A DNA stretch of 64,000 bases, from positions 534,092 through 598,091 of the forward strand of contig JANCYW010000002.1 of NCBI GenBank assembly GCA_026184775.1. Reading direction: 5' to 3'. A program made the position numbers and the translations under genes. This stretch comes from Cyanidium caldarium. Lineage: Eukaryota > Rhodophyta > Bangiophyceae > Cyanidiales > Cyanidiaceae. The notes below the pieces were generated by a model, which saw only the letters and a list, made by a program, of their open reading frames with translations, was not told the DNA's origin and did no database searches. Shown here piece by piece: positions 5,747 to 37,875 of this stretch; the first letter of the stretch is position 1; every line of letters starts with the position of its first letter.

Positions 5747-5972
5747 CGCAGACTCACACGGTCGTCCACCGATCCGAGGTGCCGATCGGGTGCCGGTGCA
5801 CACGACTCCCCACCACCGCGCCGCAGCCGTCGCTCCAATTCTTCGCTCCTGCCGCCGCGTTCTCGCGTCGGGTGCGCGGACCCGCATAGGGCGAAACACG
5901 CACGGCCCGCCGGTTGCATCCATCACCACCGCCTCCACAAACGTCCACTTGTTCACGTATACGACGGGCGCT

Positions 5973-7466
5973 TTATCGCGACGGTCGTGACGACAGCGGT
6001 GGTGAGGAGGGATCGCGGTGGCCGACGCCGGCGGCAGAGGAGCCGCTACCGGCCGCGATGACCCGGGAGCGGTCCATGAAAAAGGCTAAAATATCGGACA
6101 GGGAGATGACGCCCAGCACGTGCTGCTGCTCGTCGACCACGAACACTTGGCGCACCCGAAAGTCGTATCCGAGGTGTTGGAATACGGTGTTGAGGGTGTC
6201 GTGCGGGTTGCAGGTGGCGAGGCGGTGCGAGCGGTGGCGACGTTGCTGGGTCAGCCGCGGGTGGTCACGCACCTTCACGGTGGTGTCGCGCAGCAGGTGA
6301 TAGCGCCATCGTAGCGAAAAGTTAGGGGCGGGTGCTGCGGCGTTGTGCTCGATGCGTTCTGGCGATGGCGCCGGCGTGGTATGCAGCAGCTCGGGGGCGA
6401 TCAGCCACAGCGCATCGGTGCGCGACAGCACGTTGACGAGGGCGCCGGCCTCGTTGACCACCGGTAGGGCGTGCACATCGCCGTCTACCATGAGGCGCAG
6501 CGCGTCCTGCAGGGACTGGTTCTCGTTGACGGTCAGCACGTCTTGAAAAGTGCCGATCCGCAGCATCTCGATCGGCACCGAGAACAGCTCCAACAGCGTC
6601 GCCGAGGTGCCGGCGGCCGCCACCGCGTCCGCTGGCAACTCCGCACTTGCGTCTTGGTTCAACACCTCGGTCACCTGTTGCGCCGCCAGTTGCTCGCTGA
6701 GAAACGACAGGATGCGCGCGTGGTCCAACACCGACAGCACCGTCTTATCCACCCCGCTGATCAGCGGCAGATGATGGATGTGGTGATCGCGCAGCAGCAC
6801 CGACGCCTCGTACAGCGAGCCGTTGGCGCGGCACGTGACCATTTGGAACGAGTTGTGTCGTGGCAGACGACCGTAGGACCACTTGGCCGGTGGTCGCAGC
6901 CACAGCGATGAGGGCGCCGCCAGAGCCCCATCGCCCGCGCGCTTGCGAGCCACGCCCGCACCGCTGCCATAGCTGGCGTCGGCGTCGGTGCCGCCTCTTC
7001 GACAAAATTGCAACCACCCGTCCAATGTCTGCGCGTGCAATAGTGCCAGCGCGCGTTGATCATACTGGTCGTCGCTCAGCGAGCGCCGCACCGCCTCGCC
7101 GCCGCCGCTGTCCTCCACTGCGCCGTCCTCGGCGTCCAGTCGTTCCTGGAGAAACAACAAGATCTCCCCAACGTCCGCCGTAGATAACATTCCCACCAGT
7201 TCCTGACTCGATGACGCATCCCACAATAGCGCCACCGCTGTCTGCTGCTCCAGCAGCGCCGCAAACGCATCGGCGAGCGACAGCCCCACCTCCAACACCA
7301 CCACCCGCGAGTTCATCGGCAACACCTCGTCTACGCGCCGCTCCTTCATAAACCGCGTCACTGCCGCCCGAGCCACCTCCAGGTGTCGAGCCATGGTCTG
7401 CGCACCAGCAGCGCCATCGCCAGCAGTTGATGACGCCGGCACGTCGTCCGCTCCCGGGGGCTCCAT
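5973..7466 (-). CDS. CBS-domain protein, AMPK-gamma/SNF4-like
   Basis: A 497-residue protein with repeated CBS motifs. Recognisable halves include [21 protein letters not shown] near the N-terminus, [13 protein letters not shown] in the middle, [15 protein letters not shown] with VHALPVV, and a last repeat with [22 protein letters not shown]. Two tandem CBS pairs and the overall length resemble the gamma subunit of SNF1/AMP-activated kinase, which senses adenine nucleotides; other four-CBS proteins are possible. No transit peptide is evident. The ATG at 7466 is preferred; ATG 7394 ([10 protein letters not shown]) is an alternative and lies just before the first conserved segment. It is on the same strand as GPI, 295 bases upstream of it. 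Confidence 0.8.
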
Positions 7467-26235: not shown

Positions 26236-26547
26236 ACGAGAAGAATCAGAAGGCGACGAGGCGATACACCAGGATGGTGATGGATCGGGTGCACGATCGA
26301 CCCGTGGCCCGTCGCGGTTGCGGTGCGTGCGAGAACCACCACCGACCCCCCACGTCGGCGCCCTGCTGGTCGGGGCCGTGCGGCGCGCGATCTTCTTCCC
26401 CTCCCCGACGACGACGACATCGCGCCAGCGGATCGCGTCGTCGGCCGGCCGGGCACGCGTTCGGCCGGTAGATCGCAGCAGACGTCGGGCGTTGTTCACT
26501 CGCCGTCCTCGTACACACGCACGCACGCGCACACACACACACACGCT
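26236..26547. other. intergenic with AC microsatellite
   Basis: 312 bases before the helicase gene. An AC run at about 26529-26544 ends just before the helicase ATG. Nothing else is recognised. Confidence 0.5.
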
Positions 26548-28863
26548 ATGCCCTCCCTGTTTTCGTTCATCTCCTGGTTGCCGGTGCGGCCGACGGGTAC
26601 GTGGGGGCGCACTGCGCGGTGCTTACCCTTTCATCCTGCTCAACGGTGGGTGACGCCGCGATGGGTGTCGTCGCGGCCGGCGGCGTCGCCGCACTTGGAG
26701 GCGGTGATGGCGGCGCTGGCGGCCAATCCGAAAGCCGTCAAGAAGGAGACAAGTGGTGACGGTGTCTCGCCGGCCCCATTATCCCCGCAGCACGTGTCCC
26801 GTTATGCTATATCGCCGGCGACGGCGGGGGTGTTGGCCGAGCGCGGCATCACCGAGCTGACCGAAATTCAGGCGCTCACCTTCAACGACGTGTTCGCCGG
26901 CAAGGACATTATCGGTCGCTCGCACACCGGCACTGGGAAGACGTTGGCGTTCGGTCTGCCAATTGTGGAGCGGCTGGTGATTATGCAGCACGAGTCGCGC
27001 GCCGCCGCCGCCTCTTCGAATGGCGCCGTTGACGACGGCACTCCGGCGGCGCCGCCGCTGCCGTCGGGCAAGGGACGCGCCCCTATCGCCATTGTGTTGG
27101 CGCCGACGCGGGAGCTGGCGCGACAGGTGAGCGAGCAACTGGAGGCGATCGGGCGCCCGCACCGGTTGTCGGTGGCATGCCTTTACGGCGGCGCCTCGTA
27201 TACGCCGCAGGAGGGCGCGCTGCAACGGGGTTTGGACATTCTGGTGGGCACGCCCGGCCGCATCATCGATCATTTGCAACGCGGCACGCTGGACTTGTCG
27301 CATATCCGCGTGGCGGTGCTGGACGAGGCCGACGAGATGCTCTCCATGGGCTTTGCCGAGGATGTCGAGACCATCTTCTCCAAGATGCCGCCCAAGACCA
27401 ACCGCCAGACGATCCTCTTCTCGGCGACGATGCCGTCGTGGGTGGTGAAGATGGCCTCGCAGCATCAGCGCTTGCCGGTCATCCACGACGCGGTCGGGCG
27501 CGGGGAGACGCGTGCCTCCAAGACCGTGCGCCACATCGCGGTGCGGGTGCCGTCGGAGGAGTCGGTCCGCGCCGCCCTGCTGGAGGACATCCTGCTGGCG
27601 TACGGTAGCGGCGATGTTGGCAGCGGAACTGGTTTGCGCTGCATCGTGTTCACCGAGACCAAACGCGAGGCCGATGAGCTGGTCGCGAGCAGCTCGGTGT
27701 TTCGCGGCACCGTCGCGCAAGTGTTGCACGGCGACGTGAGCCAGCGACAGCGCGAGGCCACCCTGAGCCAATTCAAAATGGGCCGCTTCGGTATTCTGGT
27801 GGCCACGGATGTGGCCGCGCGCGGCATCGACATCAGCGATGTGGATGTGGTGCTGCAGTTTCGGACGCCGCGCGACCCCGACACCTACATTCATCGGTCG
27901 GGGCGTACCGGACGCGCCGGACGCGCCGGCACCGCCGTGGTGCTGCATAGCGACAGCGAGACCGGACTGCTGCGGCGGTTGGAACGCGAGGCCGGCATCA
28001 CCTTTGAGCGCGCCGGGCCGCCCACCACCGAGCTGATGTTGCAGCTGGCGGCGAACCAGATGGTGCGCACCGTGGGCGACGCCGCCACCAGTGCGGTGAT
28101 CCCACACTTTGAGGCGGCCGCCGCGCAACTGCTACGCGAACCGTTCGAGGGCGACGCGCAGCGGGCGCTGGCGGCGGCGCTGGCGGTGGCCTCGGGCCGC
28201 ACCCGCATCTCCCATCGGTCGGTGTTGACCGGCGAGAGCGGCCTGCGCACGCTGCTGTTGACCGCGCCGGGCGACGCGCTGGAGCCGCGCGACGTGCTGG
28301 GCATCGTTCGGCGATTGAGCGGCGACGGTCAGCATTTCGCCGACCAGGTGGGCAAAGTGCGCCTGTGCCGCGATGCGCGCCAGGCGGTGTTCGATGTGCC
28401 GGCCGCGAGTGCCGACGCCATCCTGCAGCTGCTGCAGCGGGCTGAAGGGCAGTTGAGCGGCGCCGAGGAGGGACCGCCCGCCGGCGATACTGGAGTGGCG
28501 GCCGCGGTGGTGCTGCTCAGCGCCGGAGTGCGCCTGGAGGCGTGCCTGCAACTGCCGCCGCTGCAGTCGGAGGAGCGGGAGCGCGCCCATTCGCGCTCCC
28601 GCTTCCGCGGTCGCTCACGGTACGGCGCCGACGCCAGTGGGAAGGCAGTGGAAGAGGACGAGGAGGATGCGATGGAGGATATCGGATACGGAGGGCGATT
28701 CCGCGGTCGTGGCGGTTCGTCGAGTGCGGCATCGCGTGATGCCCGGAACGGTCGGATGGGTGTCCGCAGCGAGCACGGCAGCAGCGACCGCACTGGACGT
28801 CGGGAGCGTTTCGACCGTCGTCGCGGCGGTCGTCCGTTCAGTCGTCGTACGCGCATGCCGTAG
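26548..28863 (+). CDS. DEAD-box RNA helicase with GUCT domain (RH3/DDX21-like)
   Basis: A 771-residue ATP-dependent RNA helicase. All core motifs are present: ITELTEIQ (Q motif), SHTGTGKT (near 125-132), PTRELARQ, GTPGRIIDH, LDEADEML (near 258), FSATMPS, FTETKREADEL, ATDVAARGIDI, HRSGRTGRAGR. After the core comes a GUCT-like region (about 555-630; SRSVLTGESGLRTLLL-type start, VFDVPAA near its end), then an Arg/Gly/Ser-rich tail (SRFRGRSR, GGRFRGRGG). The GUCT domain occurs in DDX21 and in plastid RH3 and mitochondrial PMH-type helicases that help ribosome assembly and intron splicing. The N-terminus (MPSLFSFISWLPVRPTG...) is basic and acid-free, so an organelle location is likely. Confidence 0.95.
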   Translation: MPSLFSFISWLPVRPTGTWGRTARCLPFHPAQRWVTPRWVSSRPAASPHLEAVMAALAANPKAVKKETSGDGVSPAPLSPQHVSRYAISPATAGVLAERGITELTEIQALTFNDVFAGKDIIGRSHTGTGKTLAFGLPIVERLVIMQHESRAAAASSNGAVDDGTPAAPPLPSGKGRAPIAIVLAPTRELARQVSEQLEAIGRPHRLSVACLYGGASYTPQEGALQRGLDILVGTPGRIIDHLQRGTLDLSHIRVAVLDEADEMLSMGFAEDVETIFSKMPPKTNRQTILFSATMPSWVVKMASQHQRLPVIHDAVGRGETRASKTVRHIAVRVPSEESVRAALLEDILLAYGSGDVGSGTGLRCIVFTETKREADELVASSSVFRGTVAQVLHGDVSQRQREATLSQFKMGRFGILVATDVAARGIDISDVDVVLQFRTPRDPDTYIHRSGRTGRAGRAGTAVVLHSDSETGLLRRLEREAGITFERAGPPTTELMLQLAANQMVRTVGDAATSAVIPHFEAAAAQLLREPFEGDAQRALAAALAVASGRTRISHRSVLTGESGLRTLLLTAPGDALEPRDVLGIVRRLSGDGQHFADQVGKVRLCRDARQAVFDVPAASADAILQLLQRAEGQLSGAEEGPPAGDTGVAAAVVLLSAGVRLEACLQLPPLQSEERERAHSRSRFRGRSRYGADASGKAVEEDEEDAMEDIGYGGRFRGRGGSSSAASRDARNGRMGVRSEHGSSDRTGRRERFDRRRGGRPFSRRTRMP

Positions 28864-29025: not shown

Positions 29026-29380
29026 TTATTCTCGAGTGAGTCGCTCTTCCAGGGCGCGACGTCGATGTCGCTCCTCGTCCAGCGCCACTTGCATGCTCTC
29101 GATCTGTCGACGCAGCACCGCTTCGCGTTCGCGGCGACTGGCGCGCGCGGACGACGGCGCCAAGGCGGACGCTGGGGGCGACGACGTGAAGGTGGGCGAT
29201 CCGACGACGGCGGCGCCACGTTGCCCATCGCGCTCGGCAACCGGTTCGATGAGCCACTTGCCGTCGCGCATGATGCGTCGCAACGGTCGACGGGCGCCGG
29301 CGGCATCGGCGGGCGCCGTCGTCGGGGCCGACAACGCCGACAGCATCGCCTGCGGCGATCCGAATCGCTGCATGGTCAGT

Positions 29381-29438
<58 letters not shown>

Positions 29439-31461
29439 TGCTGCTCCCGACTTGCGGTGTGGGCGGCGTCGATCCGGTGGTGTCGTCGCCGCTACCCACG
29501 CCCAACCCCACTGCCCGCTGGAATGCCGCCAGCAACGAGTCATCGTCGCTGCCCAGGCTATCCGACACACTGTCCCGGCGGGGCAGCGCGCTGCGAGGCG
29601 GGCGGGATGCGGAGGCTGTGGCGCCAGCGGTCGGCGCCGGCTCCACCGTGTCCTCGCCCGACAATTCACTGTACAGCGGTTGCGACAGTTGGGAAGCAGG
29701 CGGCGCTTCGGTGGCAGTCGCCGTGGCCAAGCGCTCCAGCGAGCCGGTGCGACGCAACGGCACCGCCGGCCCGGCCACGGAGTTCTCGGGCGAGGTGGCG
29801 GACTCACCCACTGCCCCCAACACCTGTCGTTCCAGCTTGCGCACCCGTCGACTGAGCGTCTTGATCATGGCGCGCTCGCTGGCCGCCACCGAACGCGTCT
29901 CCGACAACACAATGGCCGTCCACGCGTCCACGCAGCTGTGCAGCTCGCGGTTGCCGCTGACGCATTCGTCGCGAAACGACGCCAACTCGTGTCGCAGAAA
30001 CTCGGTCTCCTGCTCCAGCGCCTCGATGCGCTGCAGCGCCCGTTCCCACAGCGGTTCGCGCGTCGTCGGCGGCAGCAGCAAGCCGGTTGGGTGCGGACTG
30101 GACGCGGTGGAGGACGCGTCGCCGCGCACGGCCAGCCGGGCGGCGCTCTCCTCCCGCGGCACCGGCACCGAACCGGCCGACGCCGGTGGCTCCGACGCAT
30201 CCGACAGCGAGCCGCGGCTGGCGGTGCTGGGCAGGCCGACCATGACCGGCAGCGCCGACCCGCTGCCCGAATACGGCAGCATACCGGTGCTGGTGGAGCG
30301 CGGCACACCGCTGCCCGGCAGAATATGCGACGACGAGGAGAACAGCTCCGCGTACATTTCCACTAGCGTGGACAGCGCCGCAATCGCTCGCGGCATGTTC
30401 GCCGTGTCCTCTTCCAACAACAGCTGATCGTCGTCGCCGCTGAGCGCCTCCTCGCGCGAGCCGCCGTACGCGTGGCCACACAGGAACAACAGCGGGCCCA
30501 GCAGCGTGGCCGCATTGTCGGTGGCCGCGGCCGCGAAACTGGACAGGACCGCCCGACAGAACGGATCCACCAGCTGATCCAACACGTAGCTCAGCGCGTG
30601 CACCCGTTTGTCGCGCACCGCCGCGCCGTGTCGCCAGAGGGCGTTGCGCGCCGGTCGCACGGGCGCCCCCGTCGCCGGAGCGGTCGCCGCCACGGCCTCC
30701 TCGGCGACACCATTGTCGCTCAGCGCCACATCGGGCGGCAGTTCACCTTCGGCTGCGCGCATCAGCGCCTCAGCCTCCTCCGCCCCGAACAGCGGGTAGA
30801 ACCGGTCCTCCAGCCAACTGGCCAGCGCGCCCACCAGCGCCCAAGGCGACCGCGCCGTCAAACTCATGGTCGACGCGTAGCTGGCACGCTCGACAGGCAC
30901 GGCGCCGATCGCTGTTCGAGTCGCCGCTGAGGCGGGCGCGTCATACCCGCCACCCGCCTCCTCCCGATCGAACGCCGCTCGCAGCTGTCGCGCGTCCTCC
31001 CGCTCCATCGCCTCCCGCACCGCCCGCCGCCAACCGCCCAACGTCCAGGTGAACGATTCTCGGCTGGTCATGCCGCCACCGCTGAAGCCGACAGGCGTGG
31101 TCGACAAGGCGCCCAGCGAGCGCCCACCGTTCGACCGCCGCCACGGCGAGTTATCTCCCACAATGTCATTGCTGTTTTCGCGACCGACCGACTGGTACAC
31201 CGTCTCAGCGCCCCAGCCGGCCACGCTTATCGCCCGCACCGCCCGCACAATCCAGCGCGGCGGCCGTGGACAGTACAGCAGCCCGGCCGCCCCGCCCGAA
31301 CTCGCACTCGTCTCCACGCCGCGCTCCCGTGCCCGCCGTCCGGAAGATGCCCCCGACGGCACCCGTCGCCGTGATGGGGAGGGCGTGGAAACGAGGAGAG
31401 CGTTGGAGGAGGTGGGCACCGAAGAGGCGGCCAGCGGATGAGCAGTTCGCGGCGTTCCCAT
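29026..31461 (-). CDS. large unknown protein with poly-Gly tract and coiled coils
   Basis: An 811-residue protein of no recognised family. Residues up to about 390 contain folded-looking, mixed segments (WTLGGWRRAVREAMER, ALVGALASWLEDRFYPLF, LSYVLDQLVDPFCRAVLSSF). A Ser/Pro-rich linker follows, then a coiled coil (about 470-510, RIEALEQETEFLRHEL), another disordered Ser/Thr/Pro-rich stretch, a run of about 19 glycines encoded by a GCC/GGC repeat, and a short C-terminal coil (last ~35 residues, REREAVLRRQIESMQVAL). The overall design suggests a scaffold or adaptor. ATG 31461 is the first true ATG. Coding is supported by length and by composition differing from its antisense frames. Confidence 0.7.
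29381..29438. repeat. GCC trinucleotide repeat coding for poly-glycine
   Basis: About 18-19 uninterrupted GCC units on the plus strand, read as GGC glycine codons in the minus-strand gene. Likely length-variable. Confidence 0.95.
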
Positions 31462-32107
31462 GGCTGGGAAGGGGGAGGTGAAAACGAACGGGATGAACGA
31501 GAGACGCAAACGGTCCAGTTAACGTGCCCCCCGCTTCATGTGGGTCGTTCGAGAAAGGAGGTGGGGATGGGGGTGCACAAAATCACACGCGGCGTGCAGG
31601 ACACAGAACAAAGGGTGTCTCTCCTCGGTGGCACTCGACCCAGTCCAGCAGCTCCCACACGTGTCAGCCCCAACTCCGCCGGACCGAGCTGAGCTCCCTC
31701 GATGTTCTGCGGTCTACCAGAAGAAAGGCAACGCGGATGGGAACGCGTACCACAGTTCCCGTAACGTGTCCGCGTCTCCTAAAGCGCTCAAAGGTCCACG
31801 AAGAGTTGAACTGCTGGCGCGCACGCTGCGTGGTATCCACCGCCGGGACAACAAACCGATTGCGTCGCCGCGCCCGGCCGGAGACGTCACGCGCACGTGT
31901 TGGCCGCGAACTCGCCTTTCATGCGCTCCGGTCGGACACAACGCATATTCCGTCGTCAGCACCACCTGGCAGTCACGGAATGAGTCCGTCGTGTACGCCT
32001 GTCATACTCCGCGCCGAACAGCGAGTTTGTCGTGCGAGCACCGCACTCTGCAACATCAGGAACCGAATTTCTCTGAACAGCCTTCACAGCAAACCACAGC
32101 GGCCTGA
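31462..32107. other. intergenic, lower GC than flanking genes
   Basis: 646 bases between the start of the coiled-coil gene and the Fanzor remnant. Short overlapping frames show no domain. Composition is less GC-rich and less codon-like than the genes. It may include the left flank of the inserted element; no terminal repeat was found by eye. Confidence 0.4.
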
Positions 32108-33765
32108 GGCGATGCACCCCGTGGCACCTCGACTCCGCGCACCTCGCCCAACGTCTACCTACACGAGAGTTTCGTGGATGCCTTTGACTCCGACGACGAC
32201 CTATTCGAGGTGACGTTTGGCAGGTTCGTGCTGCAGGGAGGCCTGGACCGGTTGGCCCGACACTCTTACGCGGAGGAGCTGCAGTCGCTCCTGGACGCGC
32301 GCCACATCGCCTATGATAGCGACGCGGGCTATGAGCGCCTCGTCGACCAATCAACCGATGTCGCATGTGGACCGCCCGGCCAGAGTGGGGCGCCTGTCGC
32401 GGAAGCAGCGCCGCGTCAGCGCCAATGCAGGCACGTGGGCGGCGGCGCTCCGGCTGAATCGCCTGCGCAGGCGTCCGCCCAGGAGGCGTGTGCGCGTTTC
32501 GCGGTGAGCGTCCAGCATCGAAGCACCGGCACAGCTGGAGCCGCCACAAGAGGCTGTCGCCGTGCTGGACGGCCTGCTCGATTCGACGGCGATTCTCTCG
32601 GCATCGTTCGCACTGACCGACGATGAGGAGCATCTGAGTTGCGTCGACCGAATGCTCGATACGTGTGCGATGCTGCATTACCCGCAGCCGCCCGAGCCGC
32701 AGCCCACGGCGCCCGAAAACCGCAAGCCGTTGCCGGTGGTCTCGAACCGCGGCCCGGCGGCCAAGTACGCGCCGCAGCTGGGCGAGGCCGTACTGCCCCG
32801 GGGACGCCGTGTTTTCCTCGAGCAGGGCTCGCAACACCACATCAAGCGTCACTCAGAAGAGTGGATCCGCCGCCATTTCACGGTAGGTGCGCGCGATTGA
32901 GGAGAGCGCGTGCGCATGTGCCGGCGGTGTTGCCGCTGCGCGGTTCCCATGTGCCCGGCCACATCATGCTGGACACAACGGGACTGACGCAGCTGATGCC
33001 GCTCTAGTCAGTTGTGCCGCTGCGGTCAGCTGCGGGCGCGGAGCGCGCGGCAAGAATGGTCGTCGGGTTGGCGACTGCATCGCCGGGGCAGATCGCTGCA
33101 GGCGCTGCCAGGCACGCTGCGAGAGTCTGCAGTGTGCCGAGAGCGTCGCCACGCTGGAGGCAGCGCTCTCGGCACAACACTGTAAGCGCTCGATGACCGT
33201 CGACGGGCAGCGCCAATGGCTCCGAGCCATCCACGACGTGGAGCAGGCGCTGGGCGAGCACTACGTCCACGAGGTGTTTCGCAAGATGCGGCACGCATTC
33301 CAGTGCAACGCGGCGCGTTCGTGTGTGACCGCCTCCTGAACCGTTTCCAAGAGTGCTGTTCGGCAAGCCGGGCGACGTGCTGGTGCTTTTTGGCGACTGG
33401 GTATGGGCGCGTATCTCATGCGCAGCAGCCCGCCACTGAAAGTCAAGCAGTGGCGCGACCTGTTCGTGCGCCGCGTCCACCACGTGTACCTCATCGACGC
33501 AGCGTGCACCAGCAGGATACGCGCGGTGTGCTACCGCAGCGAGATCATGCACTGCAAGATGCACAAGGAGCCGCATTCTGGCTAGGAGCGTTGAATGTGG
33601 CGTTGGGTGCAGTGTCAGAATCCGGGTTGTAGCCGCATATTGCGCCGCGAAAAGAACGCCATATTCAACTTGATGCGCGCCGCCCAAGCCATTCTGAATG
33701 ACGAGGAGCATCCGATATACTTGCGTCGCCGTAATCTATCGGCGAGCGCGTCGAGTGTGCAATCC
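32108..33765 (+). pseudogene. decayed Fanzor1-type (eukaryotic TnpB/OMEGA) nuclease gene
   Basis: Pieces of a Fanzor protein appear in order on the plus strand but in different frames. N-terminal part: an acidic segment with DAFDSDDDLF then SYAEELQSLLDARHI (SAP-like, 32174-32350), shifting frame, with an in-frame TGA at 32505, and on to HIKRHSEEWIRRHF (to ~32890). Then LPLRGSHVPGHIMLDTT (~32925-32990); ALGEHYVHEVFRKMRHAF (~33245-33300); RLLNRFQ (~33332); VLFGKPGDVLVLFGDW (33353-33400); VHHVYLIDAACTS (~33475-33515); and a zinc-ribbon end VQCQNPGC with RILRREKNAIFNLMRAAQ (~33607-33690), with a TAG at 33583. In Fanzor1 proteins, fGDW, LIDEfrTS and RDxNA hold RuvC residues; here Glu of LIDE is Ala and RD is RE, so even the reading pieces look inactive. 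At least three single-base-type frame changes fall within about 150 bases. Confidence 0.82.
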
Positions 33766-34263
33766 GTGCCATTCGATGCATTCGACCCGATCCGGCGCCA
33801 TTGCCCGCGCGATCGACGATTTCGATTTCGGACGAGAGACGGCGGGAGATGGCGACGGCGAGCTGCATTGGTTTTTCCGGTGGTAAGTACCACAAAACGC
33901 GCTCGCGGACAGATCACACTTTGGGTGGACGCTCGAGCATATTTGGACACGCAGACACTTACGGAAACTGCGATTCGCGTTCCTTTCTGCGTCGCCTTTG
34001 TTCTGTTGTACCCAAAAAAAACGTGCAGGGGTCTGGGCCGGCCCGAAGGAGCTGGCGGGTTGACGCCGGAGCTGGCTGGATCGCGCGGAGCGGTGGAAGC
34101 GTGAGCGACACGATACGCGTCTCACGAAGAATCCCGGGACCATGAATGTAGCGCACCGCTCGGGATGCATCGAATGGAGGAGCAACTCCACAGCACACGC
34201 CAAAACCTTCACTGCGCATTCCAACCGATCATACACTGCACGTATCCTACTCCACATCTCTTC
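33766..34263. other. gene-free flank of the Fanzor remnant
   Basis: 498 bases between the remnant and the CTR9 stop. It contains an A8 run near 34013-34021 and no recognisable gene. In related elements the guide-RNA end lies downstream of or overlapping the nuclease gene, so this flank could hold its relic; no structure was recognised. Confidence 0.4.
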
Positions 34264-37200
34264 TCACCCCTCTTCCTCCTCGTCGACGACCACCCGCCGC
34301 GGCCGAGCCGGCGTAACGTCCGCCGCCTCTATATCCTCTCCCAGCACATCCCTACTCGACTGCACCTCAGTTGCCTCTCTCCCGACAACCTCCTCCGCCT
34401 CTCCTTCATGGGTCTCCTGCTCTTCCTCTTCCTGCTCTCCGACGTCCGACAATCCGTGCTCCGTGCGCCATTCTTGTTCGGCGCTCTTGCGCTGGCGCTT
34501 GCGCCTCTTTGGCACTGCGGTCGCCTGCGTGTGCGCACGACGACCGCGCCCGCCGTCTCGCTTCGCGGCACGATCACCCTGCTGGTCATCGAGCGTCAGC
34601 GACGCATCCACCTCCACCAACACATCCGGTTGGCGCCGTCCGCGTCGCTGCGCATTCCACTCCTGTTGTCGACGAGCCAGCTCGCGCTGTTGCTCCAGCG
34701 CCATCCGCTCCAGCTCCTCCTCCTCGCGTCGCTGGGCCTCGGCACGCGCCTGCGCCGCCAGCGCCTGTCGCTGCGCCTCCTGTTCGCGCAGCTGTTGCTG
34801 GAGCCGGCGCTCTTCGCGGGCGGCTTGCGCGGCGCGCTGAGCCAGCGCTCGCGCCTCCACCCCCTCGGCATGTCGCCGCTGGCACCAGTGGGCATTGCGG
34901 CGAGCAGCGTCGGCATCTACCAACCGATGCGTCGCGCCCGCCGCGCAGCGTTGCCATGCCTTGGCTTCGGCCGCCGACATCACGGAAGCGGCCGCGACCG
35001 CCACCTCCACCGCTGCAAACGTCTCTCGCGCCCGCTCCAGCAACGCCAGCCCGTGCTCCAACTCGGTCGCGTTATCGCCGCGCTCCATCATCTTGTCGGC
35101 CTGCAGCGCCAGCGCCAACGCCCAGTTGAACCACAACGTCCACGCCGCCGGCTGCCGCTGCAACGCCCGTTGCCAGACGCGCGCGCTCTCGTCGTGTCTA
35201 CCCATCTCGCCCAGCGCCACCGCCAACATCACCATCGATTCGGCATCCGCACCGCCGCTCGCTATCTGTTCCTCCGCCAAGCGCACCGCGGCGCGAAGCC
35301 CGGCCGGCATCGTAGCCCCGCGCAGCACATGCACCGCCACCAAGTTGGCGCGCGCGCACGCCACCACCGACGGCTCGATGCCCGGCGCGGCGCCCTGTTG
35401 TACCACCGCCGCATAACACTCTTCCGCCTCCTGCAGCAGGTTGCGCTCCTGGAAGAACACCCCCAGCAGGTTCATGGCGGCCACATTGCCCGGCGAACGT
35501 TGCAGCACCGACGCCAGAATGTGTCCGGCGGCCGCCAGAAACTTGTCGCACCGCCTCGGATGGTGGTGTCGGGAGACGCTGCGCGCCATGACGATGTAGT
35601 AGCTGGCCATCACCACATCACAGTACGAGCGGACCGCTCCACCTGACGATGACGACGTCACCTTTTTCCACTCGTCGCGGTGGTGCACAAAATACTCAAA
35701 CCACTGCTGCGCGTCCTCCACGCGCCCCTGCGCCTGAAACAAGAAGGCCAGCGCAAACACCGCCTGCGGATGCGGCACGGCGGCGCGAAAGTAGCGCTCG
35801 GCGGCGGCCAGGTCGCGTCGATAACGCTCCGCCAGTACGCCCAGCCGGAGTGCCGCATCCACATAGGCGGAATAGGTGCGGTGAATGGCCTCGAAAAGGC
35901 GTTCGGCCGCGGACAGCGCCCCGTCCATCTCCCACAGCCGCGCGTAGTTGTACGCCATGGTGACGTGCTCCGGCTCGCGCAACAACGCCGATACCACCGC
36001 GACGGCATCCGACGGCGGCATTTCCGGCACCACCGCGCGCACCGCTTCCCGCATGGCGTCCATTGCGGCGGACAACGCGCCGTCGCGCGCCGACAGCGCC
36101 GCCACGTTGTTCCACAACAGCGCATCGTCCGGCCGCCGGGCCAGCACCGCTCGATACAGGTCGCAGCCGCGTTGCGGCTCGCGCAACTCCACCAGCTGTG
36201 CCAGACAAATGCAAGCATCGTCGGGCAACGCCGCCAGCGGCACTCGGTTCAACACCTGCACGGCCTGTTGTCCCAGGGTATCGCGCGCCGTTTCGGTTAT
36301 GTCAGGCGCCCGCGATGCCATCGCCAGCGCCACGCCCCACAGGGCAGTGGCCTCCAAACCGGCCGCCTCGTCTCTGTTACCATCGCGCAAGGCACCGCTT
36401 GTGGCCAGTTCCAGCTGCGGCATCACCCGCGCCCATTCGTCGGCCGCCTGAGCGTACTCGCCGCGGGCCAACAGCAATCGCGCCAACGCATATCGCGCCA
36501 CCGCCGACTCGACGCCGTGCTGCAGACACGTGCCGTAGAGCGTCTCGGCGGTGGTCACGTCGCCGCGCTGATGATGCCATCGGGCACGCAACGCATCGCT
36601 GCGCGCTCGCGCCTGTCGGGTGTTACCGCGGCGCATCGGCGCCGCCGCCTCGTCCAGCACCGCGCCGCTGTGCGCCGGCCGCGCTGTGGCCAATGCATTG
36701 CGCACCCGCCGATCCTCGCCGTACAGCACATACGCCTCACGCAGCAGCTCGGCGGAGAGGCTGTCCGCCGCCTCGGGTGTGCGACGCTCCAGCGCTCGCG
36801 CCACCGCCCAGGCGCCCAGCAGCGTGTTCACCGACGGCTGCCGCCGGGCATCGTCCGCAGCGCCCACCCCGGTGCATTCCGCTCGCAGCACGTAGCCAAA
36901 CACCCGACCGGCGCGCTGCCACTGTTGTGCTGCCGCTAGCGCGTACGCGTACCACCGCCACCACGGCAGCGGTGCGTCGTCACCGTACTGCCGGAGGGCA
37001 TCGGCCAGCAGGCCAGCAGCACGGTGGGCGGCATCGACAATACCACCGCCGCTGGCGCTGTCCTCATCCGCCAGGATCGACAGCGCCAGTCCCACGCGCG
37101 CCAACATGGCCAGCGCCGGGGTGGACCGGTCCGTCAGGGCGCGCGCGTGCTCCTCGAACAGAGGGCGCGCTCCGCGGGCATCGCCCAGGAAGAGCCGCAG

Positions 37201-37584
37201 AAAAGCAGTGGACCAGGCGTCACCGGCGGCGACACGGCGCAGCGCGTACTCATCGGCGACATGGTCGGCGTCGCGGGCATCTACAGCGGAATTGCCAGCA
37301 ATGTGCAGAAAGGTCAACAGCCGGCGGGCCGGGGCGCCCAGCGACTCCGCGCCCGACTCCAGCAACGCCACCGCGTCACCGTGCCGCTGCGCCCGCACCA
37401 GCGCCAAGCACGCGTCGCGCCACGCCGGCCACTGCGCGGCGGTGGTCTGCAGTACGGTGATCACGTCGGTTACCGCGTCCACCGCCGCCGGTCGGAACTG
37501 GCGCCCGTCCGGCAGTTGCACCGCCTCCGGCCAGCAGTGCCCCAGCCATGAGGGCGACGGATTCGCTGGCGCCGCGGCAGCCAT
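34264..37584 (-). CDS. CTR9: CTR9, TPR subunit of the Paf1 transcription elongation complex
   Basis: A 1106-residue protein made of many TPR-type helical repeats across roughly residues 20-860 (examples: AVARYALARLLLARGEYAQAADEW, PDDALLWNNVAALSARDGAL, VAAMNLLGVFFQERNLLQEAEECY), followed by a long charged helix (EERRLQQQLREQEAQRQ...) and a basic/acidic disordered tail with RRPRVVVDEEEEG-type sequence. Length, TPR array, the helical Glu/Gln/Arg-rich region and the acidic tail match CTR9, which with PAF1, LEO1, CDC73 and RTF1 accompanies RNA polymerase II and promotes histone modification in the nucleus. ATG 37584 is the first true ATG (MAAAAPANPSPSW). Confidence 0.88.
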   Translation of the reverse strand: MAAAAPANPSPSWLGHCWPEAVQLPDGRQFRPAAVDAVTDVITVLQTTAAQWPAWRDACLALVRAQRHGDAVALLESGAESLGAPARRLLTFLHIAGNSAVDARDADHVADEYALRRVAAGDAWSTAFLRLFLGDARGARPLFEEHARALTDRSTPALAMLARVGLALSILADEDSASGGGIVDAAHRAAGLLADALRQYGDDAPLPWWRWYAYALAAAQQWQRAGRVFGYVLRAECTGVGAADDARRQPSVNTLLGAWAVARALERRTPEAADSLSAELLREAYVLYGEDRRVRNALATARPAHSGAVLDEAAAPMRRGNTRQARARSDALRARWHHQRGDVTTAETLYGTCLQHGVESAVARYALARLLLARGEYAQAADEWARVMPQLELATSGALRDGNRDEAAGLEATALWGVALAMASRAPDITETARDTLGQQAVQVLNRVPLAALPDDACICLAQLVELREPQRGCDLYRAVLARRPDDALLWNNVAALSARDGALSAAMDAMREAVRAVVPEMPPSDAVAVVSALLREPEHVTMAYNYARLWEMDGALSAAERLFEAIHRTYSAYVDAALRLGVLAERYRRDLAAAERYFRAAVPHPQAVFALAFLFQAQGRVEDAQQWFEYFVHHRDEWKKVTSSSSGGAVRSYCDVVMASYYIVMARSVSRHHHPRRCDKFLAAAGHILASVLQRSPGNVAAMNLLGVFFQERNLLQEAEECYAAVVQQGAAPGIEPSVVACARANLVAVHVLRGATMPAGLRAAVRLAEEQIASGGADAESMVMLAVALGEMGRHDESARVWQRALQRQPAAWTLWFNWALALALQADKMMERGDNATELEHGLALLERARETFAAVEVAVAAASVMSAAEAKAWQRCAAGATHRLVDADAARRNAHWCQRRHAEGVEARALAQRAAQAAREERRLQQQLREQEAQRQALAAQARAEAQRREEEELERMALEQQRELARRQQEWNAQRRGRRQPDVLVEVDASLTLDDQQGDRAAKRDGGRGRRAHTQATAVPKRRKRQRKSAEQEWRTEHGLSDVGEQEEEEQETHEGEAEEVVGREATEVQSSRDVLGEDIEAADVTPARPRRVVVDEEEEG

Positions 37585-37875
37585 GCGCCCAGCGACCAAT
37601 GAGGTGAGGTTTTGGGGAGATGGAGGTGTGTGTGTTTTTTTGGTGAAGAGGACGCCGCCCCGCAGTGCGCCGCGGAGAGCGCAGTCGGTTCGAACGGGTG
37701 CGTCCGCCGGGAGACAAGTCGCGTCCGACCGTGGGGGTGGACGCGGCAGGAGCAGGAACTCCTCAACGCAAAGTTGAGCGTGAGGGAACAGTACGAGTGT
37801 GGAATATAAAAGTTCACCTTGTACAAGACAAGGCTATACACGACCAACGTCGACCAGAAGCTTCTACTCTCCCCC

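What the first reader, a model, noticed from the sequence alone, without database searches (positions are those of the whole stretch)
32108..33765. Broken Fanzor (eukaryotic RNA-guided nuclease) gene with altered catalytic residues
Seen: ordered fragments typical of Fanzor1 proteins (LPLRGSHVPGHIMLDTT, FRKMRHAF, VLFGKPGDVLVLFGDW, VYLIDAACTS, CQNPGC with RREKNAIFNLMRAAQ) in changing frames, with stops at 32505 and 33583. The Glu of the LIDE-type site is Ala and the RD of the last site is RE. Known: Fanzors are TnpB relatives using an RNA guide, found in some algae and in large DNA viruses. Inference: an old insertion decaying here, so intact relatives and their guide RNAs may exist elsewhere in this genome.
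Basis: partly seen in the sequence, partly recalled or inferred. Interest (0 to 1): 0.82.

Follow-up and report, generated by a model that had tools for sequence, protein, structure and literature searches.

The report
Decayed Fanzor1 mobile element, red alga
This is the wreck of a mobile DNA element that once carried a Fanzor gene (an RNA-guided DNA-cutting enzyme), probably in a tiny hot-spring red alga; it is too broken to work, but one copy with an open reading frame and many sister wrecks lie elsewhere in the same genome.

Summary
The pieces match an open 1121-codon Fanzor1 frame on contig C3 of the same genome (tblastn E 3e-23 and 2e-5), which matches solved Fanzor1 proteins (3.4e-11, 2.6e-9). 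Copies on C18 and C8 share three frameshifts and both residue changes without shared flanks; the few differences among the three are even over codon positions, so the gene probably died before they separated. A distant copy (C1) keeps the three catalytic motifs in broken frames. The genome fits Cyanidium caldarium (inference). Fanzor1 in a sister red alga is in print since 2013, there without TIRs (PMC3627910). Three transposase/recombinase families searched gave nothing. A guide RNA is not supported for this copy. Verdict: real, mostly ordinary; a new member of a known kind.

The parts
31644..31802 (-). 5' terminal inverted repeat (about 160 bp; 72% like the 3' one over 139 bases)
   Evidence: Self inverted match E 3e-13; a profile without any C2 end finds it at E 3.3e-26; matches the 3' ends of the C14, C19 and C12 copies
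31897..34083 (+). Unit shared with C18 (94%) and C8 (92% and 99% in two blocks); left end lies at about 31897-31923
32108..32623 (+). Frame piece in the N-terminal part of the element; no match to the C3 protein by itself, so its Fanzor origin rests on position
   Evidence: also in C18 and C8
32508..32897 (+). Broken Fanzor1 piece, weak match to C3 residues 426-452
   Evidence: blastp E 0.002 against two proteins
32918..33004 (+). Fanzor1 segment VPAVLPLRGSHVPGHIMLDTT (C3 residues 475-503), ended by a stop at 33005
   Evidence: blastp E 2e-9 to C3, 4e-6 to P0001
33005..33171 (+). Deletion zone relative to C3: residues ~504-853, including RuvC-I, correspond to about 56 codons
   Evidence: gap between the two matches; C1 keeps RuvC-I
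33139..33336 (+). Fanzor1 segment AQHCKRSMTVDGQRQWL...FRKMRHAFQCNAARS (C3 residues 854-903)
   Evidence: blastp E 3e-14
33359..33436 (+). Fanzor1 segment FGKPGDVLVLFGDW (C3 residues 915-928), in another frame
   Evidence: blastp E 1e-7
33439..33582 (+). RuvC-II region, YLIDAACTS: catalytic Glu is Ala; first Cys of the zinc ribbon lost
   Evidence: piece alone is weak, E 0.013
33595..33765 (+). Second half of zinc ribbon and RuvC-III: CQNPGC...RREKNAIFN, RD is RE
   Evidence: blastp E 1e-13
33923..34083 (+). 3' terminal inverted repeat, ending GGCTGGAT

Best explanation
The stretch is a dead Fanzor1 element. Shown: a Fanzor1 reading frame ruined by stops, frameshifts and loss of RuvC-I, between ~160-bp terminal inverted repeats; two other places (C18, C8) carry the same frameshifts and catalytic changes without detectable shared flanks; differences among the three show no sign of coding constraint (small numbers). 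Inferred: the parent was a DNA transposon with TIRs that carried Fanzor1 as a passenger; the nuclease gene decayed, and the dead unit was still copied to new places, by an unidentified transposase in trans or by recombination; no working Fanzor is made here today.
For: Homology. TIRs. Shared lesions: relative to C3, frameshifts of the same size near residues 903, 914 and 929 are in C2, C18 and C8 alike (frames), with both catalytic changes. No homology of the 9.9-kb loci outside the unit at E <= 1e-12. Differences at codon positions 1/2/3: 11/9/13 (C2-C18, p 0.70), 10/5/6 (C2-C8, p 0.37), 8/8/8 (C18-C8). C1 keeps VVIDPG, LVNEACT and HRDK in broken frames and has a frameshift of the same size near residue 912-914.
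Against: C18 and C8 lack the 5' TIR that C2 and C1 have, so they are not clean two-ended transpositions. No target-site duplication is visible by eye at C2 or C1. No match to the three transposase/recombinase families searched. C8 is a mosaic: 99.4% like C2 in 33243-34081, 97.0% in 31917-33107. The codon-position test rests on 33, 21 and 24 differences, so its power is low. Some lesions are not shared: C18 has Gln at the 33583 stop; C8 lacks the 33005 stop and, by deletion, the 32505 stop.
Confidence: 0.88

Rival explanations
1. Domesticated nuclease-dead Fanzor (like the nuclease-dead TnpB repressors, recalled): the catalytic changes are adaptive and a guide-bound DNA-binding protein is still made.
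For: Both catalytic changes occur at all three places.
Against: Three shared frameshifts and several stops; RuvC-I and about 295 residues missing relative to C3; differences even over codon positions, though few.
Confidence: 0.03
2. The copies at C2, C18 and C8 arose by segmental duplication, ectopic recombination or gene conversion, not by transposition.
For: Mosaic identity of C8; missing 5' TIR in C18 and C8; patchy divergence of C18 in the 3' part.
Against: No homology outside the unit in 9.9-kb loci at E <= 1e-12; all three end at the same right terminus.
Confidence: 0.3
3. The frame is interrupted by introns or programmed frameshifts and the gene is alive.
For: The shift near C3 residue 912-914 is shared by C1 and the trio although they are about 74% identical there.
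Against: RuvC-I and two catalytic residues lost; no codon-position bias; C1 has lesions of its own.
Confidence: 0.03

Closest known systems
CMe-1A Fanzor1 elements of Cyanidioschyzon merolae (PMC3627910; section 12 and passages read)
   Same: Fanzor1 elements in a cyanidiophycean red alga, many diverged copies; target-site duplications not determined
   Different: CMe-1A is given as about 150 copies, about 3 kb, without TIRs; C2 and C1 here have ~160-bp TIRs. The two were not compared by sequence
Fanzor1 elements with TIRs and no transposase of their own: SPu-1; MuDR-like ROr-4, PBl-3, MCi-4 (PMC3627910, passages and section 12)
   Same: Fanzor1 gene between TIRs, no transposase seen inside
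   Different: SPu-1 has 33-bp TIRs and putative TA duplications, the MuDR-like ones 9-bp duplications; none recognised here
SpuFz1 and its 'ghost' elements (PMC10432273, passages read)
   Same: Element ends are found apart from a working Fanzor gene
   Different: Ghosts lack the Fanzor ORF; here a shared wreck of it remains and no guide RNA was shown
Parasitella parasitica Fanzor1 (PDB 9cf0)
   Same: Best solved relative of the C3 protein, E 3.4e-11
   Different: The window copy lacks RuvC-I, the RuvC-II Glu and the RuvC-III Asp

Membership tests
Fanzor1 | Sequence homology to known Fanzor1 proteins | tested here: met
   Through C3: PpFz1 3.4e-11, SpuFz1 2.6e-9, window to C3 3e-23; window to Fanzor1-like P0001 directly 1.2e-4
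Fanzor1 | RuvC-I with DPG Asp | tested here: not met
   Not found in the window copy; present in C3 and C1
Fanzor1 | Alternative RuvC-II Glu six residues before the zinc-ribbon Cys pair (definition from PMC10711439, passages) | tested here: not met
   Ala in C2, C18 and C8; Glu in C3 and C1
Fanzor1 | Zinc ribbon (PF07282) and RuvC-III RD | tested here: not met
   No PF07282 match for window pieces; RE for RD. C3: PF07282 at 4.5e-10 and NRD
Fanzor1 | Intact reading frame | tested here: not met
   Stops and frameshifts: a Fanzor1 pseudogene by descent, not a working Fanzor1
Fanzor1 | Guide RNA from the element's 3' end | tested here: inconclusive
   Window z -0.02 and +0.77, C1 +1.15. C3 3' end z -1.46 over 191 nt, -2.71 over a 97-nt piece picked after that fold; C13 -2.48. 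On 8 ends the covariation score is reached by 86 of 500 shuffles and the consensus fold does not return that structure
TIR DNA transposon | Terminal inverted repeats | tested here: met
   C2 and C1; not found at the left of C18 and C8
TIR DNA transposon | Target-site duplication | tested here: inconclusive
   None seen by eye at C2 or C1
TIR DNA transposon | Transposase in the genome | tested here: inconclusive
   No match to PF00239, PF10551 or PF13358; other families not searched

The most novel reading that the evidence does not exclude
Fanzor1-derived TIR elements kept spreading after their own nuclease had died because their ends were still served in trans by a living Fanzor1 such as the C3 copy: a nuclease-helper and dead-passenger pair inside one of the smallest free-living eukaryotic genomes.
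Probability: 0.08. Interest if true: 0.55.

Novelty: new member of a known kind. Interest (0 to 1): 0.27.

Why it matters
If the organism is right, this adds a second red-algal genus with Fanzor1 elements, here with long TIRs, and points to an open C3 copy in a heat- and acid-loving alga, whose enzyme might be heat-stable (inference). The set of broken copies orders the death of the nuclease gene against the spread of the element. One search for Fanzor with Cyanidium in the held library found 0 papers; subscription papers and preprint servers are not covered.

Tried and rejected
Pfam on 7 separate window pieces gave nothing of use. The C3 frame found no relative in phage records or viral contigs (45 pattern matches, none confirmed). 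A protein search with C3 residues 690-1060 gave 1 protein, P0001, from a metagenome, among 2729 candidates. The family-B frame on C7 had no Fanzor among solved structures. The end of the C3/C13 subfamily resembles the TIR end by eye, but the hold-out TIR profile finds nothing in L008 or L013 even at E 10, so no TIR is claimed there. Folds of the TIR ends gave a covariation term of 0.03. A +1 shift near C3 residue 987 in the trio was first counted as a lesion; neighbouring gaps cancel it, so it is dropped. Structure prediction was not run. Domestication was set aside on frameshifts and the codon-position test, which has low power.

Full report
Setting. The window is C2:534092-598091 of a genome of 8,787,356 bases in 20 contigs and ends with the contig (598,091 bases) in AATGGGGGG repeats: 9 in the last 400 bases, 1 on either strand in the first 61 kb. 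Cyanidium caldarium 063 E5 is given in print as 8.79 Mb, 20 contigs, 65.7% GC, telomere AATGGGGGGG (PMC13353863, passages). A kelch-trefoil gene and a repeated methyltransferase gene near an end of C16 fit the subtelomeres described for this alga (PMC9812998, passages). That the genome is this species is inference.

What is there. PF07282 has 7 places in the genome, none in the window; the longest open frames among them are on C3 (1121 codons) and C7 (1109). The C3 protein matches PF07282 (4.5e-10) and solved Fanzor1 proteins, its VVIDPG, LINE and NRD lying opposite SpuFz1 VVIDP, LLDE and NRD. The window aligns with the C3 protein at 3e-23 and 2e-5. Taken apart against two proteins, 5 of 7 window pieces match C3 at E <= 0.002, one is at 0.013 and one has no match. 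RuvC-I is missing, the RuvC-II Glu is Ala, the RuvC-III Asp is Glu.

The element. Inverted repeats lie at 31644-31802 and 33923-34083. A profile made without C2 ends finds the left arm at 3.3e-26 and the right at 2.2e-40 in the window plus six loci; the right-arm value is not independent, since the C8 end in the model is nearly identical. C1 has such arms at 81% over 155 bases. The right ends of C2, C18, C8, C1 and C14 close with GGCTGGAT or a near variant. No target-site duplication is visible by eye at C2 or C1.

Copies. A DNA search gave C18 (94%), C8 (91% and 99% in two blocks), C1 (81% over part) and weaker places. In the region aligned with C3, C18 and C8 share with the window three frameshifts (near residues 903, 914, 929) and both catalytic changes. 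Not shared: Gln in C18 at the 33583 stop; no 33005 stop in C8; deletions of 34, 33 and 145 bases in C8, which remove the 32505 stop. C18 and C8 lack the left TIR. Loci of 9.9 kb show no homology outside the unit at E <= 1e-12. In the coding pieces, differences at codon positions 1/2/3 are 11/9/13, 10/5/6 and 8/8/8: no sign of constraint, with little power. The gene was therefore probably dead before the copies separated. C1, 74% identical in the 3' part, keeps the three motifs in broken frames and shares one shift near residue 912-914.

Other Fanzor places. A search with the C3 protein gave 41 matches (41 of 75 candidates scored), about 29 places by my own grouping; only C3 is open over its full length. 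C3 against C13 (94%) shows 42/38/61 differences at codon positions 1/2/3 (p 0.04); against the C14 copy 197/152/186 (p 0.046); the five other comparisons (C12, C7, C1, window, C8 minus strand) have p 0.12 to 0.64. So evidence of past constraint in the family is slight. Expression and activity of C3 are untested.

Guide RNA. The window's 3' end folds no better than shuffles (z -0.02; +0.77), nor does C1 (+1.15); Rfam has no match at gathering scores in 30000-36000. The C3 3' end gives z -1.46 over 191 nt (24 of 200 shuffles as good) and -2.71 over a 97-nt piece chosen from that fold (1 of 200); C13 -2.48 (3 of 200), C10a -1.83, C16b -2.36, C8a -0.79. On 8 aligned ends the C13 structure gives 68.6% paired cells (38 of 500 shuffles reach it), covariation score 0.225 (86 of 500), pairs changed on both sides 7 (420 of 500), though it is above all six slid versions; the automatic consensus fold is weak and different. 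Open.

Movers. PF00239, PF10551 and PF13358 have no match in the genome at E <= 0.001. Other families were not searched.

Known work. Bao and Jurka 2013 (PMC3627910; section 12 read; passages) describe about 150 copies of CMe-1A in Cyanidioschyzon merolae, about 80% identical to the consensus, without TIRs. PMC10711439 and PMC10432273 were seen in passages. Listings: Fanzor 82 papers, 40 listed; with red algae 5, 4 listed; with Cyanidioschyzon 3, 2 listed; with Cyanidium 0.

Verdict. A real, dead Fanzor1 element with TIRs: a new member of a known kind, of modest interest, useful mainly as a pointer to the open C3 copy.

Noticed in passing
L014:1843-2141 and 5928-6226 (C7:385842-386140 and 389927-390225): A second Fanzor-like frame (1109 codons; LDPGMAK, VDEYRTTKCCWRC, VDRDVNAS) lies between two 299-bp direct repeats 99.7% identical; a genome search found these two copies only.
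   Followed up: partly
L055 (C16:6500-12500): Fanzor C-terminal remnants start at 2178, 3967 and 5756, spaced 1789 bases; two units (97% identical over 2062 bases) each hold a 385-codon methyltransferase frame (arsM by analogy with PMC9812998), beside a kelch-trefoil gene. Similar remnants lie near other contig ends.
   Followed up: partly
C2:31135-34824, C1:223129-226803, C14:250698-254254: Three places that match the same pieces of the C3 protein in the same order, a further set of sister copies; only C14 was read (L030).
   Followed up: no
L008:1524-1668: Upstream of the open C3 Fanzor lies a fragment of another Fanzor on the opposite strand; the C12 locus (L011) shares this stretch, C13 does not.
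   Followed up: partly
window 33340-33360 and L028: A frameshift of the same size near C3 residue 912-914 in C1 and in C2/C18/C8 although they are distant: an old shared lesion, or something read through.
   Followed up: partly
window 33766-34081: Most C2-C18 differences of the 3' part fall here, in patches next to nearly identical stretches: a mosaic, perhaps gene conversion.
   Followed up: no
window 29029-31509 and 34267-37599: The element lies between two long minus-strand frames, one without a Pfam match and one with TPR repeats; a DEAD-box helicase frame lies at 26323-28860.
   Followed up: no
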